This document shows, one piece after another, positions 4,427 through 45,447 of a stretch of DNA of 64,000 nucleotides. The position numbers were made by a program, and so were the translations under genes. The notes beneath the pieces were generated by a model, which searched no databases, was not told the origin of the DNA, and saw only the letters and a list, made by a program, of their open reading frames with translations. The stretch covers positions 1-64,000 of the forward strand of contig CASEVJ010000010.1 in NCBI GenBank assembly GCA_949291365.1. Reading direction: 5' to 3'. The stretch comes from an uncultured bacterium. GTDB lineage: Bacteria; Elusimicrobiota; Elusimicrobia; Elusimicrobiales; Elusimicrobiaceae. Position 1 is the first letter of the stretch; the number at the start of each line of letters is the position of its first letter.

Positions 4427-5512
4427 TTATCGGCAAGAATTCTGTGTTGTACCACAAGATTGCGTAGAAGGACACGTCCATTCATATTTTTCTCTTCGGC
4501 AAATCAGGACTCCAGCCAAACTATCGTAATAACCACTATAATTCGTCTGTACAGGGACAGCAAAAGAACAACGAAATTCTCCTTCAAATGTATCCCTATC
4601 AAACATATTATCGGCCATATCAGCACACGTTACAGCAGCTGCACTAGCGGCCTCATTCCTGTCGGAATAATTCGGGATAGAATATCCATCATGGTCACAC
4701 GCAGCTGCCCCAGATTCAGCAACAATATTAGATACAGAGCATGTACCTCCCTGATAATCAGGATAAGAATATTCATTTTCAGCATCATATAAGTGGCAGT
4801 TATATGCTTGTATATAAGATTGTTCCATCTCTCCATAAGCAGAGCAGGAGCGAACACACTGCGAGCCATTCCAAGAAACATTCTCTCCGGTGCAGCATTT
4901 TTGCTGATTAGGATTCTCTGTGCAGTCCTGCTCGGTAGATTCTTCCGTTCCGCAGGAGGCAAAGCCAAGTACTTTATAGGATTGGTTGTCGTCAGTTAGG
5001 CGGGTAACCCACTGCAAGCCCTGGCACTCGCTCGGAGCCGTGGGAATGGTATTGTTGCCCAGTACAAACCCGGAGATAGAGTTTCCATTGTAATCCGTAG
5101 TGGCTTCCCCAGATACTGACACTTGCCGCAAAGCCATTCTGTTGGCCTGCACACGCATAGAGGCCCCTATCATATTGCCAATTTGAGAGGTACCGCTGCC
5201 CACAAAAGAAGCGGGGCCGCTGCTATACAAGGTAGTCGTATTGAAATCCGTATTAGGCATATTCAGCGTGCCCTGCACTTCGGTTCTGTCCGCCTGATAA
5301 TTGCCGGCATTGTTGAAAGTGACCGTGCCGCCGGACTGCACCGTAACGGCCTGTGCAGAGATACCGCCTTTGCTGGTCAGGCCGCCGGAAATCTTCAGGT
5401 TTTCATAACGGCCCAAACGGGCGGGGTTGAACGAAACAGCGTCTATTGCTTCCGCTGCCGTCCACGTGGCGGCCAGAAAGACCGCCGCTACTAACAATAA
5501 GCATTTTTTCAT
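4427..5512 (-). CDS. Secreted Cys-rich protein of unknown function
   Basis: A 361-residue exported protein that I do not recognise. A signal peptide (MKKCLLLVAAVFLAATWTAA) is followed by about 150 residues rich in Gly, Ser, Thr and Asn in short beta-like repeats, then a C-terminal half with many cysteines, including CCTGENVSW, TCADMADNMF and closing CPSTQSC. The cysteines suggest disulfides, so an envelope or extracellular location. I start at ATG 5512, preceded by AAAGGGG, rather than 5557. The DNA of the C-terminal half is visibly more AT-rich than that of the N-terminal half, hinting at a domain of different origin. A surface adhesin-like role is only a guess. Confidence 0.75.
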   Translation of the reverse strand: MKKCLLLVAAVFLAATWTAAEAIDAVSFNPARLGRYENLKISGGLTSKGGISAQAVTVQSGGTVTFNNAGNYQADRTEVQGTLNMPNTDFNTTTLYSSGPASFVGSGTSQIGNMIGASMRVQANRMALRQVSVSGEATTDYNGNSISGFVLGNNTIPTAPSECQGLQWVTRLTDDNQSYKVLGFASCGTEESTEQDCTENPNQQKCCTGENVSWNGSQCVRSCSAYGEMEQSYIQAYNCHLYDAENEYSYPDYQGGTCSVSNIVAESGAAACDHDGYSIPNYSDRNEAASAAAVTCADMADNMFDRDTFEGEFRCSFAVPVQTNYSGYYDSLAGVLICRREKYEWTCPSTQSCGTTQNSCR

Positions 5513-5617
5513 AAAAGCCCCTTTACTGCTTGTATTTACACAAAAAAAATGTATCAAAAAAATAAATACGGGTCAAGACATTTTTGGCAAAAGCCCGTTT
5601 ATTTATTTTGTATATTA

Positions 5618-6375: not shown

Positions 6376-6723
6376 ATGCTTTTAAAAATTATCCGCAAAT
6401 TCAGCTCCGCCCACCGCCTGCCGCACTATGACGGCCCCTGCCACCATTTGCACGGGCACACCTGGAAAGTGGTCTTTTTGATAGAAGGCCCCGTCCGGGC
6501 CGACGGCATGGTGGCGGATTTTAAACAATTAAAACCGCTGCTGGATGCCCAGCTGCCAGACCATTGCTATTTAAATGACTTGCTGGAAAATCCCACGGCG
6601 GAAAACCTGGCTCCGTATTTGTTTGACAAAGCCGCCGCCGCGCTAAAACCGCTGGGGCTGACGCTTAAAACGCTGGAACTGTGGGAAAACGAGAATGCCG
6701 CCGCCGTGTGGGAAGGCCAATAA
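6376..6723 (+). CDS. queD: 6-carboxy-tetrahydropterin synthase
   Basis: A 115-residue QueD/PTPS-family enzyme that converts dihydroneopterin triphosphate to 6-carboxytetrahydropterin for 7-deazaguanine (queuosine) synthesis. Zinc-binding histidines are H13, H26 and H28, and the catalytic cysteine C22 sits in the C-x3-H-G-H pattern typical of QueD. A conserved Glu lies near the C-terminus (LELWENE). GAGGT precedes the ATG. It opens the block queD-queE-folE, which draws on one GTP-derived pterin pool. A second, Cys-less family member lies at 8811. Confidence 0.93.
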   Translation: MLLKIIRKFSSAHRLPHYDGPCHHLHGHTWKVVFLIEGPVRADGMVADFKQLKPLLDAQLPDHCYLNDLLENPTAENLAPYLFDKAAAALKPLGLTLKTLELWENENAAAVWEGQ

Positions 6724-6750: not shown

Positions 6751-7341
6751 ATGAACAACACGCTAAAGGTAAATGAAATTTTTTATTCCCTGCAGGGAGA
6801 AGGCCCGCATACCGGCATGGCGGCGGTATTTTTGCGCCTGGCCGGCTGCAGCATGAACTGCCCTTTCTGCGACACCCGCTACGCCTTTGCCCAAGGACAG
6901 GACATGACCTATGCAGAAATTATCAACAAGCTGGAGCAATACCCCTGCCGCAACGTCATTATCACCGGCGGGGAACCCACCGAGCAAGACTTTGCCCCGC
7001 TGGCGCGCCTGCTTAAACAGCGCGGATGGACGGTGCACATGGAAAGCAACGGGGCTCAAAACGCCGATGTATCTGATATAGATTTTTTGGTCATCTCCCC
7101 CAAAAAGCATGTCTGCCCAGACATGCTTGCCAAAGCCCACGCTATTAAAATTGTAGTCGGGCAGGATACCGATTTGGAAGAATTAAAAACGTATTTCCCG
7201 TATGCAAACGGCCGCACTGCCGTCTGCCTGCAGCCACAAAGCAACAAACAGGAGAACATAGATTTATGCGTAAAACTAATAAAACAAAATCCGTTTCTAA
7301 AGTTAAGTCTGCAAATGCACAAACTGGCACACATAAAATAA
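6751..7341 (+). CDS. queE: 7-carboxy-7-deazaguanine synthase
   Basis: A 196-residue radical SAM enzyme that ring-contracts 6-carboxytetrahydropterin to 7-carboxy-7-deazaguanine. The iron-sulfur cluster motif is C33-x3-C37-x2-C40, preceded by the family hallmark SLQGEG (13-18) and followed by an ITGGEP segment. The product would next need QueC, then QueF and Tgt to reach queuosine; none is in this window. There is no clear ribosome-binding site 27 nt after queD. Its 3' end overlaps folE by 76 nt in another frame. Confidence 0.93.
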   Translation: MNNTLKVNEIFYSLQGEGPHTGMAAVFLRLAGCSMNCPFCDTRYAFAQGQDMTYAEIINKLEQYPCRNVIITGGEPTEQDFAPLARLLKQRGWTVHMESNGAQNADVSDIDFLVISPKKHVCPDMLAKAHAIKIVVGQDTDLEELKTYFPYANGRTAVCLQPQSNKQENIDLCVKLIKQNPFLKLSLQMHKLAHIK

Positions 7342-7886
7342 CCCAGGAAAAAGTATTGCAAAACCTGCGGGAAATTTTAACCTATATTGGTGACGACCCC
7401 TCCCGCGAAGGCCTGCAGGAAACTCCCAAGCGCATTTTGCGCAGCTGGGACAAACTGTTCGGCGGATACAAAATGCGCCCGCAGGACGTGCTAAAAACAT
7501 TTACCGAAGGGTCTTGCGACGAAATGGTGGTGCTCAAAGACATTGAATTTTATTCCACCTGCGAACATCATTTGCAGCCGTTTTTCGGCTCTATCAGTAT
7601 TGGCTATCTGCCCAAAGGACGGGTGCTGGGCATTTCCAAGCTGGCGCGTTTGGTAGAAGTATTTGCCCGCCGCCTGCAGATACAGGAAAAACTGGTGGCC
7701 CAAATTGCCGACAGTTTAATGGAAACCCTAAAGCCGCACGGCGTAATGGTGGTGTGCAAAGCCAAACACATGTGCATCAGTTCGCGCGGCATTGAAAAGC
7801 ACAACGCCGTCATGGTCACCAGCGCCATACGCGGCGCATTTAAAAAAATGGAAGTGCGCAACGAATTTTTAGAGATGATAAAATAA
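7266..7886 (+). CDS. folE: GTP cyclohydrolase I
   Basis: A 206-residue type I GTP cyclohydrolase making 7,8-dihydroneopterin triphosphate, the branch-point compound for both queuosine (via QueD) and folate. Zinc ligands are seen in STCEHHLQPFFG and in a later MCISSRG segment, and SREGLQETPKRI is the N-terminal family block. A basic, low-complexity stretch of about 25 residues precedes the core. The ATG at 7266 lies 13 nt after AGGAG and within the end of queE, a 76-nt overlap. A TTG near the core is an alternative but would leave a short N-terminus. Confidence 0.93.
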   Translation: MRKTNKTKSVSKVKSANAQTGTHKITQEKVLQNLREILTYIGDDPSREGLQETPKRILRSWDKLFGGYKMRPQDVLKTFTEGSCDEMVVLKDIEFYSTCEHHLQPFFGSISIGYLPKGRVLGISKLARLVEVFARRLQIQEKLVAQIADSLMETLKPHGVMVVCKAKHMCISSRGIEKHNAVMVTSAIRGAFKKMEVRNEFLEMIK

Positions 7887-8019: not shown

Positions 8020-8814
8020 ATGCAAAAACAAATCATGGGCATCATTAATGCAACGCCCGACTCTTTTTATGACGGCGACCCACAGCATAACCTGGGCACA
8101 CTGCTGGACAAATGCGCCCGGCATATAGCTGACGGCGCAGACATATTAGATATCGGCGGGGAATCCACCCGCCCCGGCGCCACGCCGGTCAGCGCTGAAG
8201 AAGAATTGTCCCGCACGCTGGAGCTGATTAAACAAGCGCGCGTCCGCTGGCCGAAAATACTGATTTCCCAAGACACCTTTAAACTCCCGGTGGCTCTGGA
8301 AGGGCTAAAAGCCGGCGTCAAGATAATTAATGACGTCAGCGGTACGCCGGATACGGAAATGTTTAAACTGGTTAAAGACTTTGGCGCGCAGCTGGTCATC
8401 ATGCACAGCCGCGGCAACCCGCAAACCATGCAGAACATGACACAGTATGATGATTTATTGCAGGAAATCAAAGAGTTCCTTTCTGCTAAAATTGACCAAG
8501 CCCAACAATATGGCCTGACAAAAGAGCAAATCATCATAGACCCCGGCTTTGGCTTTGCCAAAACGCGGGAGCAAAATTATAAACTCTTGGCACACGCGGG
8601 CTTTTTTACTAATATGGGGGTACGGCTTTTGATTGGGCTTTCCCATAAAAAATTTTTAAGCCAGCCCGGCGAAAAGCCCCCCAAACGCAAAACACAAACC
8701 CTGTGCGCCAACTTTGCCTCACTGCAGGCCGGAGCAGACATTTTGCGCGTACACGACGTGAAAGAAACCAAGAAAGTCGTCAATTTCTTTTTGGAACTGG
8801 AGGCCAACTCATGA
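8020..8814 (+). CDS. folP: Dihydropteroate synthase
   Basis: A 264-residue TIM-barrel enzyme that joins p-aminobenzoate to hydroxymethyl-dihydropterin diphosphate. Family signatures are clear: GIINATPDSF at the start, DIGGESTRPGA for pterin binding, an INDVSG strand and IDPGFGFAKT. The ATG at 8020 has no strong ribosome-binding site but places the first signature correctly. Its TGA overlaps the ATG of the next gene (ATGA), so it is coupled to the PTPS-III-like gene. Confidence 0.95.
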   Translation: MQKQIMGIINATPDSFYDGDPQHNLGTLLDKCARHIADGADILDIGGESTRPGATPVSAEEELSRTLELIKQARVRWPKILISQDTFKLPVALEGLKAGVKIINDVSGTPDTEMFKLVKDFGAQLVIMHSRGNPQTMQNMTQYDDLLQEIKEFLSAKIDQAQQYGLTKEQIIIDPGFGFAKTREQNYKLLAHAGFFTNMGVRLLIGLSHKKFLSQPGEKPPKRKTQTLCANFASLQAGADILRVHDVKETKKVVNFFLELEANS

Positions 8815-9161
8815 GTAAAGTATATTTAACCCAAGCAGGGTCTTTTACTGCCATGCACAGCCACGACGGCACCCTGGCGGAACCCTTACACAAACATCTC
8901 TTCCACTATGAAGCTACTTTCTACGGAGACATCAACGAAGAACGCTTCCTGGTGGATTTCCGCCAAATCAGCCAAATGTTCAAAAATGAACTGGAAAAAA
9001 TGTTGGACGGCTCGGACTTAACAACCTTTCTGCCCTTTCCCACGGCGGAATCGCTGGCAATTTGGCTCTACGACCGCATTAAGGTCAAAATGCCCAAACT
9101 CTACAGCGTCAAAGTGGCTGAATCCGAAGACCGCTGGGTAGAATACCGGGGAGAAGAATAA
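8811..9161 (+). CDS. PTPS-III-type pterin lyase, likely FolB substitute
   Basis: A 116-residue 6-pyruvoyltetrahydropterin synthase family protein. Unlike the QueD at 6376 it has no catalytic cysteine; the metal site reads E24-P-L-H27-K-H29 with H16 or H18 upstream. Glu followed by H-x-H is the hallmark of PTPS-III, a group shown in Plasmodium and several bacteria to make 6-hydroxymethyl-dihydropterin, bypassing dihydroneopterin aldolase (FolB). Its place between folP and folK, with ATGA and TAATG overlaps on both sides and no folB in the cluster, supports that role. The start at 8811 is set by the folP overlap; the frame extends further upstream only inside folP. Confidence 0.82.
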   Translation: MSKVYLTQAGSFTAMHSHDGTLAEPLHKHLFHYEATFYGDINEERFLVDFRQISQMFKNELEKMLDGSDLTTFLPFPTAESLAIWLYDRIKVKMPKLYSVKVAESEDRWVEYRGEE

Positions 9162-9652
9162 TGCCCCTGGCCATTTTGGGGCTGGGCAGCAACCAAGGCA
9201 ATCCCAAGCAAAATTTAGACCTGGCCATAGAAGCCCTGGGCACGCTGGGCCAGGTCAAAGAAACAGCCCCCTATATCCTCTCTAAACCGGAAGGATACGA
9301 AGCACAGCCGGATTTTGTCAATACGGTGGTATTGCTCTCCACGCCGTATCAGCCGGCGGATTTGCTGCGCAAACTTAAAGAACTGGAAAGCAAGCTGGGC
9401 CGCGTGCCCACATTTAAAAACGGCCCGCGTGTAATTGACCTGGATATCTTGTTTTACGACGACCAAATTGTCTTTGATGATGAAGTAATGCTCTTTGTGC
9501 CGCACCCGCGGCTGCATGAGCGCGAATTTGTATTAAAACCGCTAAGCTATTTGCTGCCAGATTATGTACACCCTAAACTGGGCAAAACCATTACGGCCTT
9601 ATACCGCGAACTCATGCGCAAGAAAGGTGTTCCAAGCTGCAAAATTTTGTAA
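9161..9652 (+). CDS. folK: Hydroxymethyl-dihydropterin pyrophosphokinase
   Basis: A 163-residue enzyme that activates 6-hydroxymethyl-7,8-dihydropterin with ATP for FolP. The start LGLGSNQGNP and the block RVIDLDILFYDD with the following PHPRLHER are the family signatures. The ATG overlaps the preceding stop codon (TAATG). It closes the pterin cluster; the next gene has its own ribosome-binding site after a 37-nt gap. Confidence 0.95.
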   Translation: MPLAILGLGSNQGNPKQNLDLAIEALGTLGQVKETAPYILSKPEGYEAQPDFVNTVVLLSTPYQPADLLRKLKELESKLGRVPTFKNGPRVIDLDILFYDDQIVFDDEVMLFVPHPRLHEREFVLKPLSYLLPDYVHPKLGKTITALYRELMRKKGVPSCKIL

Positions 9653-39409: not shown

Positions 39410-39440
39410 GCGCACGCACGCCTGAATCTTTGACAAAACA

Positions 39441-39482
39441 AAAAATCTCTTATACGCCTGCAGGCGGGAAGAGATTTTTTGT
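39441..39482 (+). terminator. Terminator after argS with palindromic loop
   Basis: AAAAATCTCTT (39441-39451) pairs with AAGAGATTTTT (39469-39479). The loop contains the self-complementary CGCCTGCAGGCG. It lies only 25 nt before the macroglobulin start codon, so it may limit read-through into that gene. Confidence 0.75.
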
Positions 39483-39507
39483 CTTACAGGGAAATGAGGG
39501 AGGAAGC

Positions 39508-42500
39508 ATGAAAAAAATTATTTTACTGGCTCTTTGTCTGCTGCCGACGGCCGTCTGGGCGCAAAACCGTCAAGCGGCAGACGCCGCCTACGAAAACGGC
39601 GACTTTGCCCAAGCACAGCAATATTATCAGCAGGAACTTAAAACCGCTAAAGGAGAAAATCTCTATGAGGCGCAGTTGCGTCTGATTGCCAGCCAATATA
39701 TGCAGGGTAAATATCAGACTGCCGCAGAAAGCGCTTTTACGTTTGAACTGCCCAAAAATCCGCTGTGGAAAGCACGCTTTCTGCTTTACCGCGCACAGAC
39801 GGCCCAGCGCGTGAGCGAAATTTATTCCCCCATTTTACCCGATGCCCAGGAAGAGGATGCATCTTTCCCCCAATTAAGCAAAAGCCAGTGGAATGAAAAA
39901 ATAGACCAATGCTACGAACAACTTTGGGATTTACGCACGTTTTTGGTGAATGCCCCCATAGAAAAAGAAACCCTGATTCTCAATTTGCAGGATACGGACA
40001 CGAAAGCCATTCCCACGCTGTTTGACTTTACGGTACTGCGCTGGAAAGAACGTCTGTTGGCTTCGCCGGTCGCTGTTCCGCTGCGCGCCGCAGACGTGCT
40101 GACCGCAGACTACAAAAGCCCCTCCCAGGCCAAAAATGATGCCCAAAAAGCTGTCTCTCTTTTAGCAGACGCCGCCGATTTAGGGGGCAAAGGGCGCACC
40201 AATGCCCGCATTATCTGGCAGGCACAGCGCCTGACATTGCCGTTTGAATACCCCCATTTATTTAGTTTTGAAGACAAAGGAAAACAAACCGTCCAGGCCG
40301 CCCAGCTGCTGCAGGAGCTGGCCGGCTACTCCCAGGAAAAGAAAAGTTTTTTGGCTAAAATCAGCCAGGCCCTGCTCTCCAGCGGCGCGCCGTACGGCAA
40401 AGCATACGCGGCGCTGCAGGCGGCTTATTTGTTAAACCAAGCGGAAGAATATGACCAAGCCGTCTGCGTGTGTGACTATGCCGCCGAAGAAATCAACGGC
40501 GGGTATTACAGCCAGGCCTGTGCGGAATTTGCCCAAGGCATACGGGAGCCGTCGCTGCAGGTACAGCCGCTGGCCTCCAGCCAAAACCTGGCGGAAGGGA
40601 AAATTGCTTTTACCGCACGCAACATAGACCAGGTATATGCCCGTATTTATTCCGCCAGCGAGGCGGACTTGCGCAAATGGTACAAAGCCGAACATACGGG
40701 CACAATCAATTCCTGGCGCTATTTAATGACGGTGCCGGCCTCTCAAATCCCGCAGATTTTACAGCGCACCCCCGTCGGAGAAGCGCATTCTCCCGTCAGT
40801 TATCCCAAACCGCACGCTTTCCAAAAAGGGGAACTCCAGCTGCCCGCTTTGAATAAACGCGGTTTTTATGTGGCGCTGCTCTCGCACGAGCCCAACTTTG
40901 ACACCGCCAAATCCCCTGTGCAGGCTCTCGTGCTCAATAATACGGAGCTGGCTCTGTTTGCTTCTTCAGCCATAGAAGGCAACCCTGCCGACTATCGTAC
41001 CCGGGCCAACAAAACATTTACCCCCAATGTATTCCGCATCTACGCGCTGAACCTGAAAACCGGCGAACCGGTGCCCGGGGCAGACATTACCTATTATACC
41101 GACTGGAAAGGCCAGACGGAAAACGGCCAAACCAATGAAAACGGCTTGCTGACGCTGCAACGTAAAATACAAATAAACGCTAACAAATCCAACAACTATT
41201 TCATTTTGCCCAAGGCCGTTAAAGATGACAGCACGGCGTTTATGCCCTCTGCCATTTACTTTAACTATTATCCCTCTTCTCCTTTCTCGCTCTATGCAGA
41301 AACCGACCGCGCCATTTACCGTCCCGGCCAGAAAGTGCAGCTGGCGGTATATGGATTTGAAAAAACAGGCCGCGGCCTGCAAACCATGGAGCAGGGCGCA
41401 CCGCTGCAGCTTATTGTGCGCGACGCCAATTACGACAAAGTGCATGAGGCCAACTTAACCCTTAACACATACGGCACCGCACAGGATACGTTCACCTTGC
41501 CCGATACCGGCCTGCTGGGGTATTACACGGCGGAAATGACCTACAAATCTTCCGGCAAAAACATCCGCACCTATGCCAATTTCCGCGTAGACGAATATAA
41601 ACGTCCGGAATACCAAATCACGTTGTCAGACGCCGCCCAGCTCCAATATGACAAAGAAGCCACCTTGCAGGGCAGCGCCCACTACTATTTTGGCGCTCCG
41701 CTGGAAAAGGCCGCCGTAACCTATACCGTGCACCGCACCTATTTCCGTCCGCCGTTCTGGTGGTGGCGCAGCGGCAGTTTCCCGGTGGGAAATGAATTTA
41801 TAGCAGAAGGGAAAACCACTACTGACAAAAACGGAAACTTTGAAATTAAATTCACCCCCCTCCCCGGGCAGGATAACGGTTTCCCCAGTGTATTTACCGT
41901 ACACGCCTCGGTGATGGACGCTTCGGGCCGCGTCATAGAAACCCAACACGCCTATAAAGCCAGCCGCAATGGGGCCTTCTTCCAGGTGTCCTTTGATAAA
42001 GGGTTTTATGATGCCCAAACCCCCAGCCCGCTGGCCCAAATCAAGCTGACCGATGTTAACGGACAAAGCACTGGGGGCAAATTCACGGCTGAAATTTACG
42101 AGCTGGAAAACAAACTGGCTCCGGCAGACAATCTCTCCGCCGACATGCCGGCTTTCGGCAAAACGGATTTGGAAACGCTGTACGCCCAAAACAAAGAGCT
42201 GCGCCGGGTGTCCAAACAGTCGTTCTCCCTGAAAAAAGATGAAGACGCCGCCCTGCGCATAGACGCCCTGCCGGAAGGCATTTATAAATTAAAACTGCAA
42301 GGCAAAAATGCAGACAATGTGGAACTGGTGTTTCTGGTGGCGGACAAACAATCCCATTTGCAGCTGCCCGCCGTAGCTATTGCCCAGCAAAACAGCTATT
42401 ACCCGGGCACGCAAGCCAAAGTGCTTATCGGCGCCCAGGCCTTAACGGGCGCAAAACGCATTGAAGTATACAATGACGGCAATTTCTTGGCTACCCGCGA

Positions 42501-45447
42501 GCTGATAGGCCCCGGAGCGGGCATCTATGCGCTGCCTATTCAAAATGAATGGCGCGGCGGCGTATATCTGCGCTGGTTTGGTGCCGGAGATTACCGCTTT
42601 TATACTGCGCAGACGTTCATTGACGTCCCGTTTGACAACAAAGAACTTTCGTTAACTGCGGCTATCCCCGCCGAGGTCAAACCCGGGCAAAAAGTGTCAT
42701 GGGAACTCTCGGCCAAAAATGCTTCCGGCGCGCCGGTGCAGGGGCAGGCCTCCGTGCGTATTTATGATAAATCGCTGGACTATTACGCGTCCTCTGCCCA
42801 AAGCGTCTTATCTTTAGACAAGCTCTATCCGTCCCCGGCTTTTGGGGCGCAATTGACAGACAGCGGGTTTAGCGTCTACTCCACCGCCTTATACCAACCG
42901 CCAGAAAAACCTCAAACGCGCGATCTCTCTGCTCCTATATTGCCGCAGCTGAATCTGCAGCCGCGTTTCTTTGCCTATAATGCCATGGCCCGCGGCGGCG
43001 GCCCCGCCATGCAAAAAGCCCTGTCGGCAGCCGCCCCGATGGCAAACAGCATGATAGCGCGCGACGCTGTGGCGGAAGAAGAATCCGCCGTAACCATGGC
43101 CACAGCAGGAGCCAGTGCTGACAGCGCTTCTGCGGCGGAAAGCGGAGCGTCCGCTTCCGAAGCGGCGGCCCCGCGCACCGACTTTTCCGAAACGGCTTAT
43201 TTCAACCCCATGCTGCCGCTGCAAAGCGGAAAAGGCAAGCTCTCTTTTACGCTGCCGCAAAGCTTGACCGAGTGGAACATCGTGGCTTTCGCCCTCACAA
43301 AAAATGCTGATTTCGGCTCCTACACCGCCCAAACAGTCACTCGAAAAGAGTTGATGGTGCGTCTGGCACTGCCACGCTTTTGGCGTGAAGGAGACAGCAG
43401 TACTTTGGTGGCCCAGGTGACCAATCTGACAGATAAAAAACGTTCCACCGAGGTCACGTTGGATATTTTGCTTAACAACCAAGACGCCGCGGCACAGCTG
43501 GGTATTGAAAAACGCACGCAAAGCGTCACTGTCCCGGCAGGCGGCACAGCGGAGGTATCCTGGCCAGTGACCTTGCCGAAAGGCGTAGGCATTTTTAGCA
43601 TAACGGCCACCGTGCGCTCCGGCCAAGAGGCAGACGCGGAAAACCGCCAAATCCCCCTCCTGCCCGCACAAGAACGCTTATCCGAAAGCACCACCGTGGC
43701 GCTGGAAAGCGGACGCGAAACGCTAAAGCTGGAGAACCTGCTTACACCGGACGCCAGCCGGCAGGTTTCCTCCGTTACGCTGCGCGTGGATCCGGGGTTA
43801 CTGCTTTCTGTATTTGAAGCCATGCCGCAATTGTTAAAACCGTATCACAATGACGCGTTGAGCATAGCCGACCGCTATGTACCGCTGGCCGTGGTCAACG
43901 GTTTTTACAAAACCTATCCCATGCTGCAAAACGCTGTGGAAGAATTGCCCAAACGTTCCACCCAAAAACCCGCGTGGGACAACCAAGACCCTTCCCGGCT
44001 GATGCTGGCAGAAGAAACCCCCTGGCTGCAAGAAGCCCGGGGCGGCGCAGAGCGGGAGGCGTTCCTGACGGATTTGTTCAATCCTTCCGCGGTGGCTAAA
44101 GCCCGCGCAACGGCTGAAAAAGAGCTGGCGAAATACCAAACCGCCGCGGGCGGATATACTTGGATGCCCGGCGGCCAGCCCAGTGAATACATTACCCTGC
44201 GCCTGCTGGCGGCATACGCAGAGGCCTTGCGCTACGGCGGGCAAATTCCGCAACAGGCGGCGCAAAAAGCGTTAAGCTGGCTGGGCCCGCGCATTGAAAA
44301 AAATCTGCAGGAAGCCGACGCTTCCGCCGCCACCGTATCGCAGGCATTATACGCCGCATATGTGTTTACCGCGTTCCCGCAGGACTGGAAAGAAATTAAA
44401 CAAACGCCCGTTCAAAACTGGCTGGATTATGCAGACCGCCATTCCCGCTACATGACGCCGCTGGGGCAAACGTATGCGGCGGCGGCCTATTCCCGCTTGG
44501 GCAAAGGCACCAAAGCGCAAAATTATTTGGACGTCGTACTGTCCCAGATGAAAACCGATCCTGTTACCGGCTCTTACTTTGCACCGGAGGCGCAAAGCTG
44601 GCTGTGGTACAACGACACGCTGGCCACCCAAACCGCTACGCTGCGCACCTTGTTGGAAATACGCCCGGAATCAGACAAAGCGGAAGGTTTGGTAAAATGG
44701 CTGCTCTTTAACCGCCAGGCCCAAGTGTGGGACAGCTCCGCCGCCACGGCAGATGCCGTATATGCGCTGCTGGACTACATGAAACGCAATGGCCTTTTGG
44801 ACGACCCTGCCGAATATACGCTCAACTGGGGCGACACCAAAAAGACCTTCCATTTTGAGCCCTTTGACTGGAGCGAACAGCTGGCATGGACAGAGCAGGC
44901 CCAAAATGTGGACAGCCGCTATTACAGCGCCACCGTTACCAAGCGCGGCGGCCTGACCGGGTTTGTTACGCTTGACGCGGTATACACCACCGCCAATGCC
45001 CAGCCCTCTGCCAAAGGAGTGCTGAATATCCAGCGCGACTACCTGCTGAAATATACCGAAGGCGGCCAGGAAAAAGTGCGTCCGCTGCAGCCCGCAGAAG
45101 CAGTGCCTGTAGGCAGTGAAGTGGAAGTACTCTTGACGCTGGAGGCCTCGTCCGCGTTTGACTTTGTCGTGCTGTCCGACCCCAAACCCGCCGGCTTTGA
45201 AAGTACTGACCTGTTAAGCGGCTGGAGCCGCGACGTCTTAAGCGTATACCGTGAAAACCGCGACGCCGCCACCAACTTCTTTTTAGACCGCGTGCCTGCC
45301 GGCACCTATACACTGCGCTATAGTTTGCGCCCCACCTTGAGCGGGGACTATCATGCCCTGCCCGCGCAGGTGCAGTCCATGTATGCGCCGCAATTTTCAG
45401 CGCATACGGGCTCTGCCCAGCTGAAGGTTTCCCCGTTGCAAGACTAA
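39508..45447 (+). CDS. Giant alpha-2-macroglobulin-like protein lacking the thioester
   Basis: A 1979-residue exported protein. After a signal peptide without a lipobox, residues about 20-110 look like TPR repeats. The MG2 block (TDRAIYRPGQKV) is near residue 600, a low-complexity Ala/Ser/Glu stretch near 1190-1225 may be the bait region, and the A2M domain (LPQSLTEWNIVAFAL) is near 1260. Where protease-trapping members have the thioester CxEQ, near residue 1440, this protein reads KPYHNDALSIADRY, so it cannot form the covalent trap. The alpha-helical toroid domain follows. A periplasmic or surface protease-inhibiting role is a family-based inference. GGGAGGAAG precedes ATG 39508. No pbpC is next to it. 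Confidence 0.88.
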   Translation: MKKIILLALCLLPTAVWAQNRQAADAAYENGDFAQAQQYYQQELKTAKGENLYEAQLRLIASQYMQGKYQTAAESAFTFELPKNPLWKARFLLYRAQTAQRVSEIYSPILPDAQEEDASFPQLSKSQWNEKIDQCYEQLWDLRTFLVNAPIEKETLILNLQDTDTKAIPTLFDFTVLRWKERLLASPVAVPLRAADVLTADYKSPSQAKNDAQKAVSLLADAADLGGKGRTNARIIWQAQRLTLPFEYPHLFSFEDKGKQTVQAAQLLQELAGYSQEKKSFLAKISQALLSSGAPYGKAYAALQAAYLLNQAEEYDQAVCVCDYAAEEINGGYYSQACAEFAQGIREPSLQVQPLASSQNLAEGKIAFTARNIDQVYARIYSASEADLRKWYKAEHTGTINSWRYLMTVPASQIPQILQRTPVGEAHSPVSYPKPHAFQKGELQLPALNKRGFYVALLSHEPNFDTAKSPVQALVLNNTELALFASSAIEGNPADYRTRANKTFTPNVFRIYALNLKTGEPVPGADITYYTDWKGQTENGQTNENGLLTLQRKIQINANKSNNYFILPKAVKDDSTAFMPSAIYFNYYPSSPFSLYAETDRAIYRPGQKVQLAVYGFEKTGRGLQTMEQGAPLQLIVRDANYDKVHEANLTLNTYGTAQDTFTLPDTGLLGYYTAEMTYKSSGKNIRTYANFRVDEYKRPEYQITLSDAAQLQYDKEATLQGSAHYYFGAPLEKAAVTYTVHRTYFRPPFWWWRSGSFPVGNEFIAEGKTTTDKNGNFEIKFTPLPGQDNGFPSVFTVHASVMDASGRVIETQHAYKASRNGAFFQVSFDKGFYDAQTPSPLAQIKLTDVNGQSTGGKFTAEIYELENKLAPADNLSADMPAFGKTDLETLYAQNKELRRVSKQSFSLKKDEDAALRIDALPEGIYKLKLQGKNADNVELVFLVADKQSHLQLPAVAIAQQNSYYPGTQAKVLIGAQALTGAKRIEVYNDGNFLATRELIGPGAGIYALPIQNEWRGGVYLRWFGAGDYRFYTAQTFIDVPFDNKELSLTAAIPAEVKPGQKVSWELSAKNASGAPVQGQASVRIYDKSLDYYASSAQSVLSLDKLYPSPAFGAQLTDSGFSVYSTALYQPPEKPQTRDLSAPILPQLNLQPRFFAYNAMARGGGPAMQKALSAAAPMANSMIARDAVAEEESAVTMATAGASADSASAAESGASASEAAAPRTDFSETAYFNPMLPLQSGKGKLSFTLPQSLTEWNIVAFALTKNADFGSYTAQTVTRKELMVRLALPRFWREGDSSTLVAQVTNLTDKKRSTEVTLDILLNNQDAAAQLGIEKRTQSVTVPAGGTAEVSWPVTLPKGVGIFSITATVRSGQEADAENRQIPLLPAQERLSESTTVALESGRETLKLENLLTPDASRQVSSVTLRVDPGLLLSVFEAMPQLLKPYHNDALSIADRYVPLAVVNGFYKTYPMLQNAVEELPKRSTQKPAWDNQDPSRLMLAEETPWLQEARGGAEREAFLTDLFNPSAVAKARATAEKELAKYQTAAGGYTWMPGGQPSEYITLRLLAAYAEALRYGGQIPQQAAQKALSWLGPRIEKNLQEADASAATVSQALYAAYVFTAFPQDWKEIKQTPVQNWLDYADRHSRYMTPLGQTYAAAAYSRLGKGTKAQNYLDVVLSQMKTDPVTGSYFAPEAQSWLWYNDTLATQTATLRTLLEIRPESDKAEGLVKWLLFNRQAQVWDSSAATADAVYALLDYMKRNGLLDDPAEYTLNWGDTKKTFHFEPFDWSEQLAWTEQAQNVDSRYYSATVTKRGGLTGFVTLDAVYTTANAQPSAKGVLNIQRDYLLKYTEGGQEKVRPLQPAEAVPVGSEVEVLLTLEASSAFDFVVLSDPKPAGFESTDLLSGWSRDVLSVYRENRDAATNFFLDRVPAGTYTLRYSLRPTLSGDYHALPAQVQSMYAPQFSAHTGSAQLKVSPLQD

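What the first reader, a model, noticed from the sequence alone, without database searches (positions are those of the whole stretch)
8811..9161. PTPS-III protein as the missing FolB
The folate cluster has folE, folP and folK but no dihydroneopterin aldolase. A pterin-lyase family protein with Glu-x2-His-x-His in place of the catalytic Cys lies between folP and folK with overlapping start and stop codons on both sides. Glu at that position marks PTPS-III proteins, known to produce hydroxymethyl-dihydropterin directly. QueD, with its Cys, lies in the same operon, so both specialised paralogues are side by side.
Basis: partly seen in the sequence, partly recalled or inferred. Interest (0 to 1): 0.6.

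Follow-up and report, generated by a model that had tools for sequence, protein, structure and literature searches.

The report
Unusual PTPS-III enzyme replacing FolB
In these gut bacteria (Elusimicrobiota) the usual vitamin-B9 enzyme FolB is missing, and a small glutamate-bearing relative of QueD that sits (sometimes fused) next to the following enzyme almost certainly does its job; the swap itself is known from other organisms, but this version breaks the published recognition motif.

Summary
ORF 8811-9161 (+, 116 aa) is a PTPS-family protein. It overlaps folP (ATGA) and folK (TAATG), and has Glu24 in E-x2-H-x-H and no active-site Cys. No FolB (or archaeal MptD) is found in the genome, and no FolB in any sampled member of its family or order. 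The tree does not put it with QueD, although its placement is unresolved. Comparative genomics adds three lines of evidence. (1) folP-gene-folK order is near universal in relatives, and also occurs in a second phylum. (2) Several relatives fuse it to FolK. (3) In a 150-genome phylum sample, the Glu next to the PTPS Cys is present in 81/81 single-PTPS genomes with HPPK and no other FolB substitute, and absent from all PTPS/QueD of genomes with FolB or this protein. The likely function is direct cleavage of dihydroneopterin triphosphate to 6-hydroxymethyl-dihydropterin. It is not a textbook PTPS-III: HGH is HxH, the Asp-His dyad is gone, the Zn-His-to-Glu loop is 2 residues shorter, and an extra His is invariant. 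A new variant of a known kind; it could be PTPS-VI, whose motif I could not check.

The parts
8811..9161 (+). PTPS-III-like protein ('P3', 116 aa), proposed FolB replacement
   Evidence: Pfam PTPS E 2.9e-16; AlphaFold2 pLDDT 95.3, Foldseek best 2oba TM 0.90
8880..8882 (+). codon of Glu24, proposed catalytic base (C+1 position)
   Evidence: invariant in 72/72 distinct orthologues (the search pattern itself required Glu, but the tblastn-derived alignment A2, did not and is also invariant)
8856..8864 (+). codons of His16 (first Zn ligand) and the extra invariant His18
   Evidence: invariant in A2; QueD and hybrids have no His at the second place
8889..8897 (+). codons of His27 and His29 (Zn ligands), with Lys28 instead of the usual Gly
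9120..9122 (+). codon of Glu104, the conserved pterin-binding Glu of the family
   Evidence: invariant column; role from knowledge of rat PTPS
8020..8814 (+). folP, dihydropteroate synthase
   Evidence: TIGR01496 E 5e-86
9161..9652 (+). folK, HPPK
   Evidence: TIGR01498 E 1.4e-35
7266..7886 (+). folE, GTP cyclohydrolase I, makes the proposed substrate
   Evidence: TIGR00063 E 7.5e-69
6751..7341 (+). queE
   Evidence: TIGR04322 E 1.8e-36, below its cut-off
6376..6723 (+). queD (PTPS-I type, CHHLHGH, no Glu after Cys)
   Evidence: TIGR03367 E 5e-22, below its cut-off; PF01242 95.9 bits

Best explanation
The protein is a PTPS-family lyase that supplies the FolB step. [quoted passage not shown] Inferred mechanism: a zinc held by His16, His27 and His29 orients the side chain, Glu24 acts as the base in place of Cys for the retro-aldol-like cleavage, and Glu104 holds the pterin. 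QueD in the same operon keeps the Cys reaction for queuosine. Shown here: family, fold, active-site residues, operon context, fusions, absence of FolB, and the phylum-wide Glu/FolB trade-off. Inferred: the reaction, the substrate (tri- or monophosphate) and the residue roles.
For: Family and fold. Overlapping genes. FolB absent from the genome, from all sampled f1 and f2 genomes, MptD absent; folE/folP/folK/folC present. folP upstream in 104/109 and folK downstream in 107/109 loci, duplicates included. P3-FolK fused ORFs in at least five distinct genomes, Pfam PTPS+HPPK in one chain. Glu rule in the phylum: 81/81 single-PTPS HPPK+ genomes without FolB or P3 carry CExxHGH; 0/19 QueD of P3 genomes and 0/9 PTPS of FolB genomes do; 9/12 HPPK-negative rows lack it. 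On a tree built without that column there are 5 changes, 5/5 independent pairs agreeing. Precedent: Plasmodium PTPS with Glu38 makes the FolK substrate, E38C does not (PMC2229834); bacterial PTPS-III (PMC5041015).
Against: No biochemistry on any member of this clade. The strict signature ExxHGH is not met (HKH), and the Asp-His dyad is missing in 24/24 P3 rows, while QueD and hybrid rows all have it. The assembly is 93% complete, so absence in this genome alone is not proof. Five independent pairs cannot reach p<0.05 (p=0.0625). Three HPPK-negative genomes still carry the Glu (likely incomplete assemblies). G061 fits the rule only if its weak FolB hit (22.8 bits, under the cut-off) is real.
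Confidence: 0.88

Rival explanations
1. It is a second QueD-like or biopterin-type PTPS (PTPS-I/II activity), and FolB is simply unrecognised or lies in the missing 7% of the assembly.
For: Same Pfam family; NCBIfam's best weak hit is QueD; plasmid tblastn hits are QueD; assembly 93% complete.
Against: No Cys at the active site in any of 72 distinct orthologues and no Asp-His dyad, so the Cys chemistry is not available. FolB is absent from every sampled genome of the family and order. Context and fusions are folate, not queuosine.
Confidence: 0.05
2. It supplies 6-hydroxymethyl-dihydropterin but from dephosphorylated dihydroneopterin or its monophosphate rather than the triphosphate, i.e. it works as a true FolB analogue.
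For: The altered loop, extra His18 and lost Gly/Asp-His could mean another phosphate site. Archaeal PTPS-III may use the monophosphate (PMC5041015).
Against: The characterised Plasmodium Glu-type PTPS uses the triphosphate (PMC2229834). No pterin phosphatase was recognised in this operon.
Confidence: 0.2
3. It is a catalytically dead PTPS kept as a structural partner of FolP/FolK.
For: Missing Cys and Asp-His dyad; FolK fusions.
Against: Zn-ligand His16/27/29, Glu24 and Glu104 are invariant in the alignment that spans both phyla, and no other FolB is found.
Confidence: 0.04

Closest known systems
PTPS-III (COG0720; Pyrococcus PF1278, Plasmodium PTPS, Rickettsia ptpS)
   Same: Glu two residues before His-x-His, no Cys, folate gene context, FolB absent
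   Different: ExxHxH with variable middle residue instead of ExxHGH; no Asp-His dyad (P. horikoshii PH0634 keeps it); Zn-His-to-Glu span 9 instead of 11; extra invariant His; invariant Arg after DF
PTPS-I/III hybrid (CExxHGH), the single PTPS of most sampled Elusimicrobiota
   Same: Glu at the same position
   Different: keeps Cys, HGH and Asp-His; predicted to serve both pathways; here the two jobs are split between two genes
QueD (PTPS-I, CxxxHGH)
   Same: fold, zinc site, same operon
   Different: no Cys here; folate instead of queuosine context
FolB (PF02152)
   Same: proposed product
   Different: PF02152 does not match the protein
PTPS-VI (validated folate enzyme, named in PMC5041015)
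   Same: PTPS-family folate enzyme
   Different: motif not given in the text I could read, so identity could not be tested

Membership tests
PTPS superfamily (PF01242) | profile match above the curated cut-off, three Zn-binding His, PTPS fold | tested here: met
   60 bits vs 22.4; invariant His16/27/29; TM 0.90 to 2oba
PTPS-III | Glu in place of the catalytic Cys | tested here: met
   Glu24 invariant in A2; 0/72 Cys at the Cys position
PTPS-III | strict signature ExxHGH | tested here: not met
   EPLHKH; Gly in 2 of 72
PTPS-III | folate gene clustering and absence of FolB | tested here: met
PTPS-III | groups with PTPS-III in a tree | tested here: inconclusive
   83/80 with canonical L104; with PH0634 AU p 0.47; origin from the family's QueD also not rejected, p 0.29
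PTPS-III | makes 6-hydroxymethyl-dihydropterin from dihydroneopterin triphosphate | not testable with these tools
   needs enzyme assay
QueD / PTPS-I | CxxxHGH | tested here: not met
   no Cys
PTPS-VI | its own signature motif | not tested
   motif not in the held papers
FolB (PF02152) | profile match | tested here: not met
   not among Pfam hits; none in genome

The most novel reading that the evidence does not exclude
A previously unnamed PTPS subfamily (AxHxH...ExxHxH), present in at least two phyla and almost always between folP and folK, does the FolB step with a rebuilt active site: both the Cys and the Asp-His pair that activates it are gone, and an extra invariant His takes over proton transfer. 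This accompanied a split of an ancestral two-job enzyme's functions into a queuosine and a folate specialist.
Probability: 0.35. Interest if true: 0.6.

Novelty: new variant of a known kind. Interest (0 to 1): 0.45.

Why it matters
FolB replacement by Glu-type PTPS is established, so the assignment is expected. What is added is a clade that motif-based annotation (ExxHGH) would miss, and a phylum-wide natural experiment in which one residue tracks whether a genome needs a FolB substitute. The P3-FolK fusions also offer a single-protein assay. G034, whose size fits the cultured Elusimicrobium minutum, carries it, so a cultured test organism probably exists.

Tried and rejected
(a) FolB elsewhere: PF02152 and PF04038 found nothing. 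(b) Recent tandem duplication of the operon's QueD: the tree puts P3 on its own 100/100 branch of length 1.52; the duplication is not rejected by AU (p 0.29) but not supported either. (c) Restriction to Elusimicrobiota: refuted by L165 (genome G167) and six more genomes of that other phylum. FolB is rare there anyway (1 of 20 tested), so its absence is weak evidence in that phylum. (d) Plasmid search: the listed hits with an annotation are QueD. (e) Pribat et al. 2009 (from memory the paper that defines bacterial PTPS-III) is not held. (f) DHFR not found, not pursued.

Full report
The observation. The ORF at 8811-9161 is real: its start overlaps the folP stop (ATGA) and its stop overlaps the folK start (TAATG). 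It matches Pfam PTPS with 60 bits. Its active-site stretch reads FTAMHSHDGTLAEPLHKH: zinc-binding His16, His27 and His29, Glu24, and Ala where QueD has its Cys. Strictly, the Glu aligns one residue after the Cys, the same place as in the known CExxHGH hybrids.

Organism. Related loci from named records are almost all Elusimicrobia(les/aceae), largely gut and rumen MAGs. The window's own assembly is 1.39 Mb and 93% complete. The organism name is inferred from relatives. G034, a single 1,643,562-base contig, fits the size I remember for the cultured Elusimicrobium minutum Pei191.

FolB. PF02152 finds nothing in this genome and nothing in any f1 or f2 genome of a 150-genome phylum sample. It does find FolB in other families of the same class and in 10 of 14 control genomes, so the search works. 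The archaeal DHNA family PF04038 is absent. folC is present.

Context. In 109 loci (some genomes occur twice) folP lies directly upstream in 104 and folK directly downstream in 107; the exceptions are contig ends and the genus of G034 and its likely relatives (L162, L169), where P3-folK is found without folP beside it. In at least five distinct genomes the protein is fused to FolK; Pfam finds PTPS plus HPPK in one chain in the one checked. In G127, a relative with one PTPS, the same operon reads PTPS(CEALHGH)-queE-folE-folP-folK with no gene between folP and folK.

A test across the phylum. If the Glu does the FolB step, it should be kept where HPPK is present and no other enzyme does the step, and free to vanish elsewhere. 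Combining the PTPS, FolB and HPPK searches with the sequences gave: 81 of 81 single-PTPS genomes with HPPK and without FolB or P3 have CExxHGH. Of the three apparent exceptions, G053 and G101 have a separate ADEPLHGH PTPS-III, and G061 has a weak, divergent FolB hit. None of 19 QueD in P3 genomes and none of 9 PTPS in FolB genomes has the Glu; 9 of 12 HPPK-negative rows lack it (G129 is counted twice there). Within genus g10, G057 (no HPPK) has CANLHGH while four HPPK-bearing relatives have CENLHGH. On a tree without that column both traits change five times and all five independent pairs agree; the sign test cannot go below 0.0625.

What kind of PTPS. Across 72 distinct sequences from two phyla, the Cys position is never Cys and the middle of HxH is Gly in only two; the Zn-His-to-Glu span is 9 in all, against 11 in 63 of 63 QueD/hybrid rows (that set was picked by a pattern that required the Glu and the His residues and allowed a span of 8 to 10). 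Independently of that pattern, Glu24 and His18 are invariant in the tblastn-derived alignment of 54 sequences. The Asp-His pair that activates the Cys is present in all QueD and hybrid rows and in no P3 row. The second phylum was reached through L165, a MAG labelled Deltaproteobacteria; seven genomes there have the protein, all between folP and folK, and none of the seven has FolB, though FolB is rare in that sample.

Structure and tree. AlphaFold2 gives a confident model (pLDDT 95.3) with the PTPS fold. In a 94-row tree the proteins form one 100/100 group on a long branch. They group with the class's canonical PTPS-III at 83/80, which is not decisive, and a PH0634 grouping or an origin from the family's QueD is not rejected either.

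How it works. Plasmodium PTPS with Glu38 makes 6-hydroxymethyl-dihydropterin, and changing the Glu to Cys abolishes this (PMC2229834). Bacterial PTPS-III is established (PMC5041015). The simplest reading is that this protein does the same with Glu24 as base, leaving QueD to queuosine. Loss of the Asp-His dyad follows naturally once the Cys it activates is gone (inference).

Limits. No activity has been measured. The substrate phosphate state, the role of His18 and the subfamily name (PTPS-III variant or PTPS-VI) remain open.

Noticed in passing
window 7266-7341: queE and folE overlap by about 76 nt on the same strand, and relatives keep a similar overlap; either a conserved long overlap or a misplaced folE start.
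   Followed up: no
order-level relatives G030, G087, G105, G109, G113, G119, G121, G143: HPPK lies in open frames of 545-617 aa, suggesting a fusion with another enzyme.
   Followed up: no
phylum of G167: G440, G439, G409, G395, G398, G381, G382: Two PTPS-family genes lie side by side, possibly another case of split functions.
   Followed up: no
whole genome G000: No DHFR (PF00186) found although folE/folP/folK/folC are present.
   Followed up: no
window 39430-45447: 2005-aa bacterial alpha-2-macroglobulin-like protein downstream of argS.
   Followed up: no
window 4427-5557 (-): 376-aa Cys-rich ORF with a signal-peptide-like start and no Pfam match.
   Followed up: no
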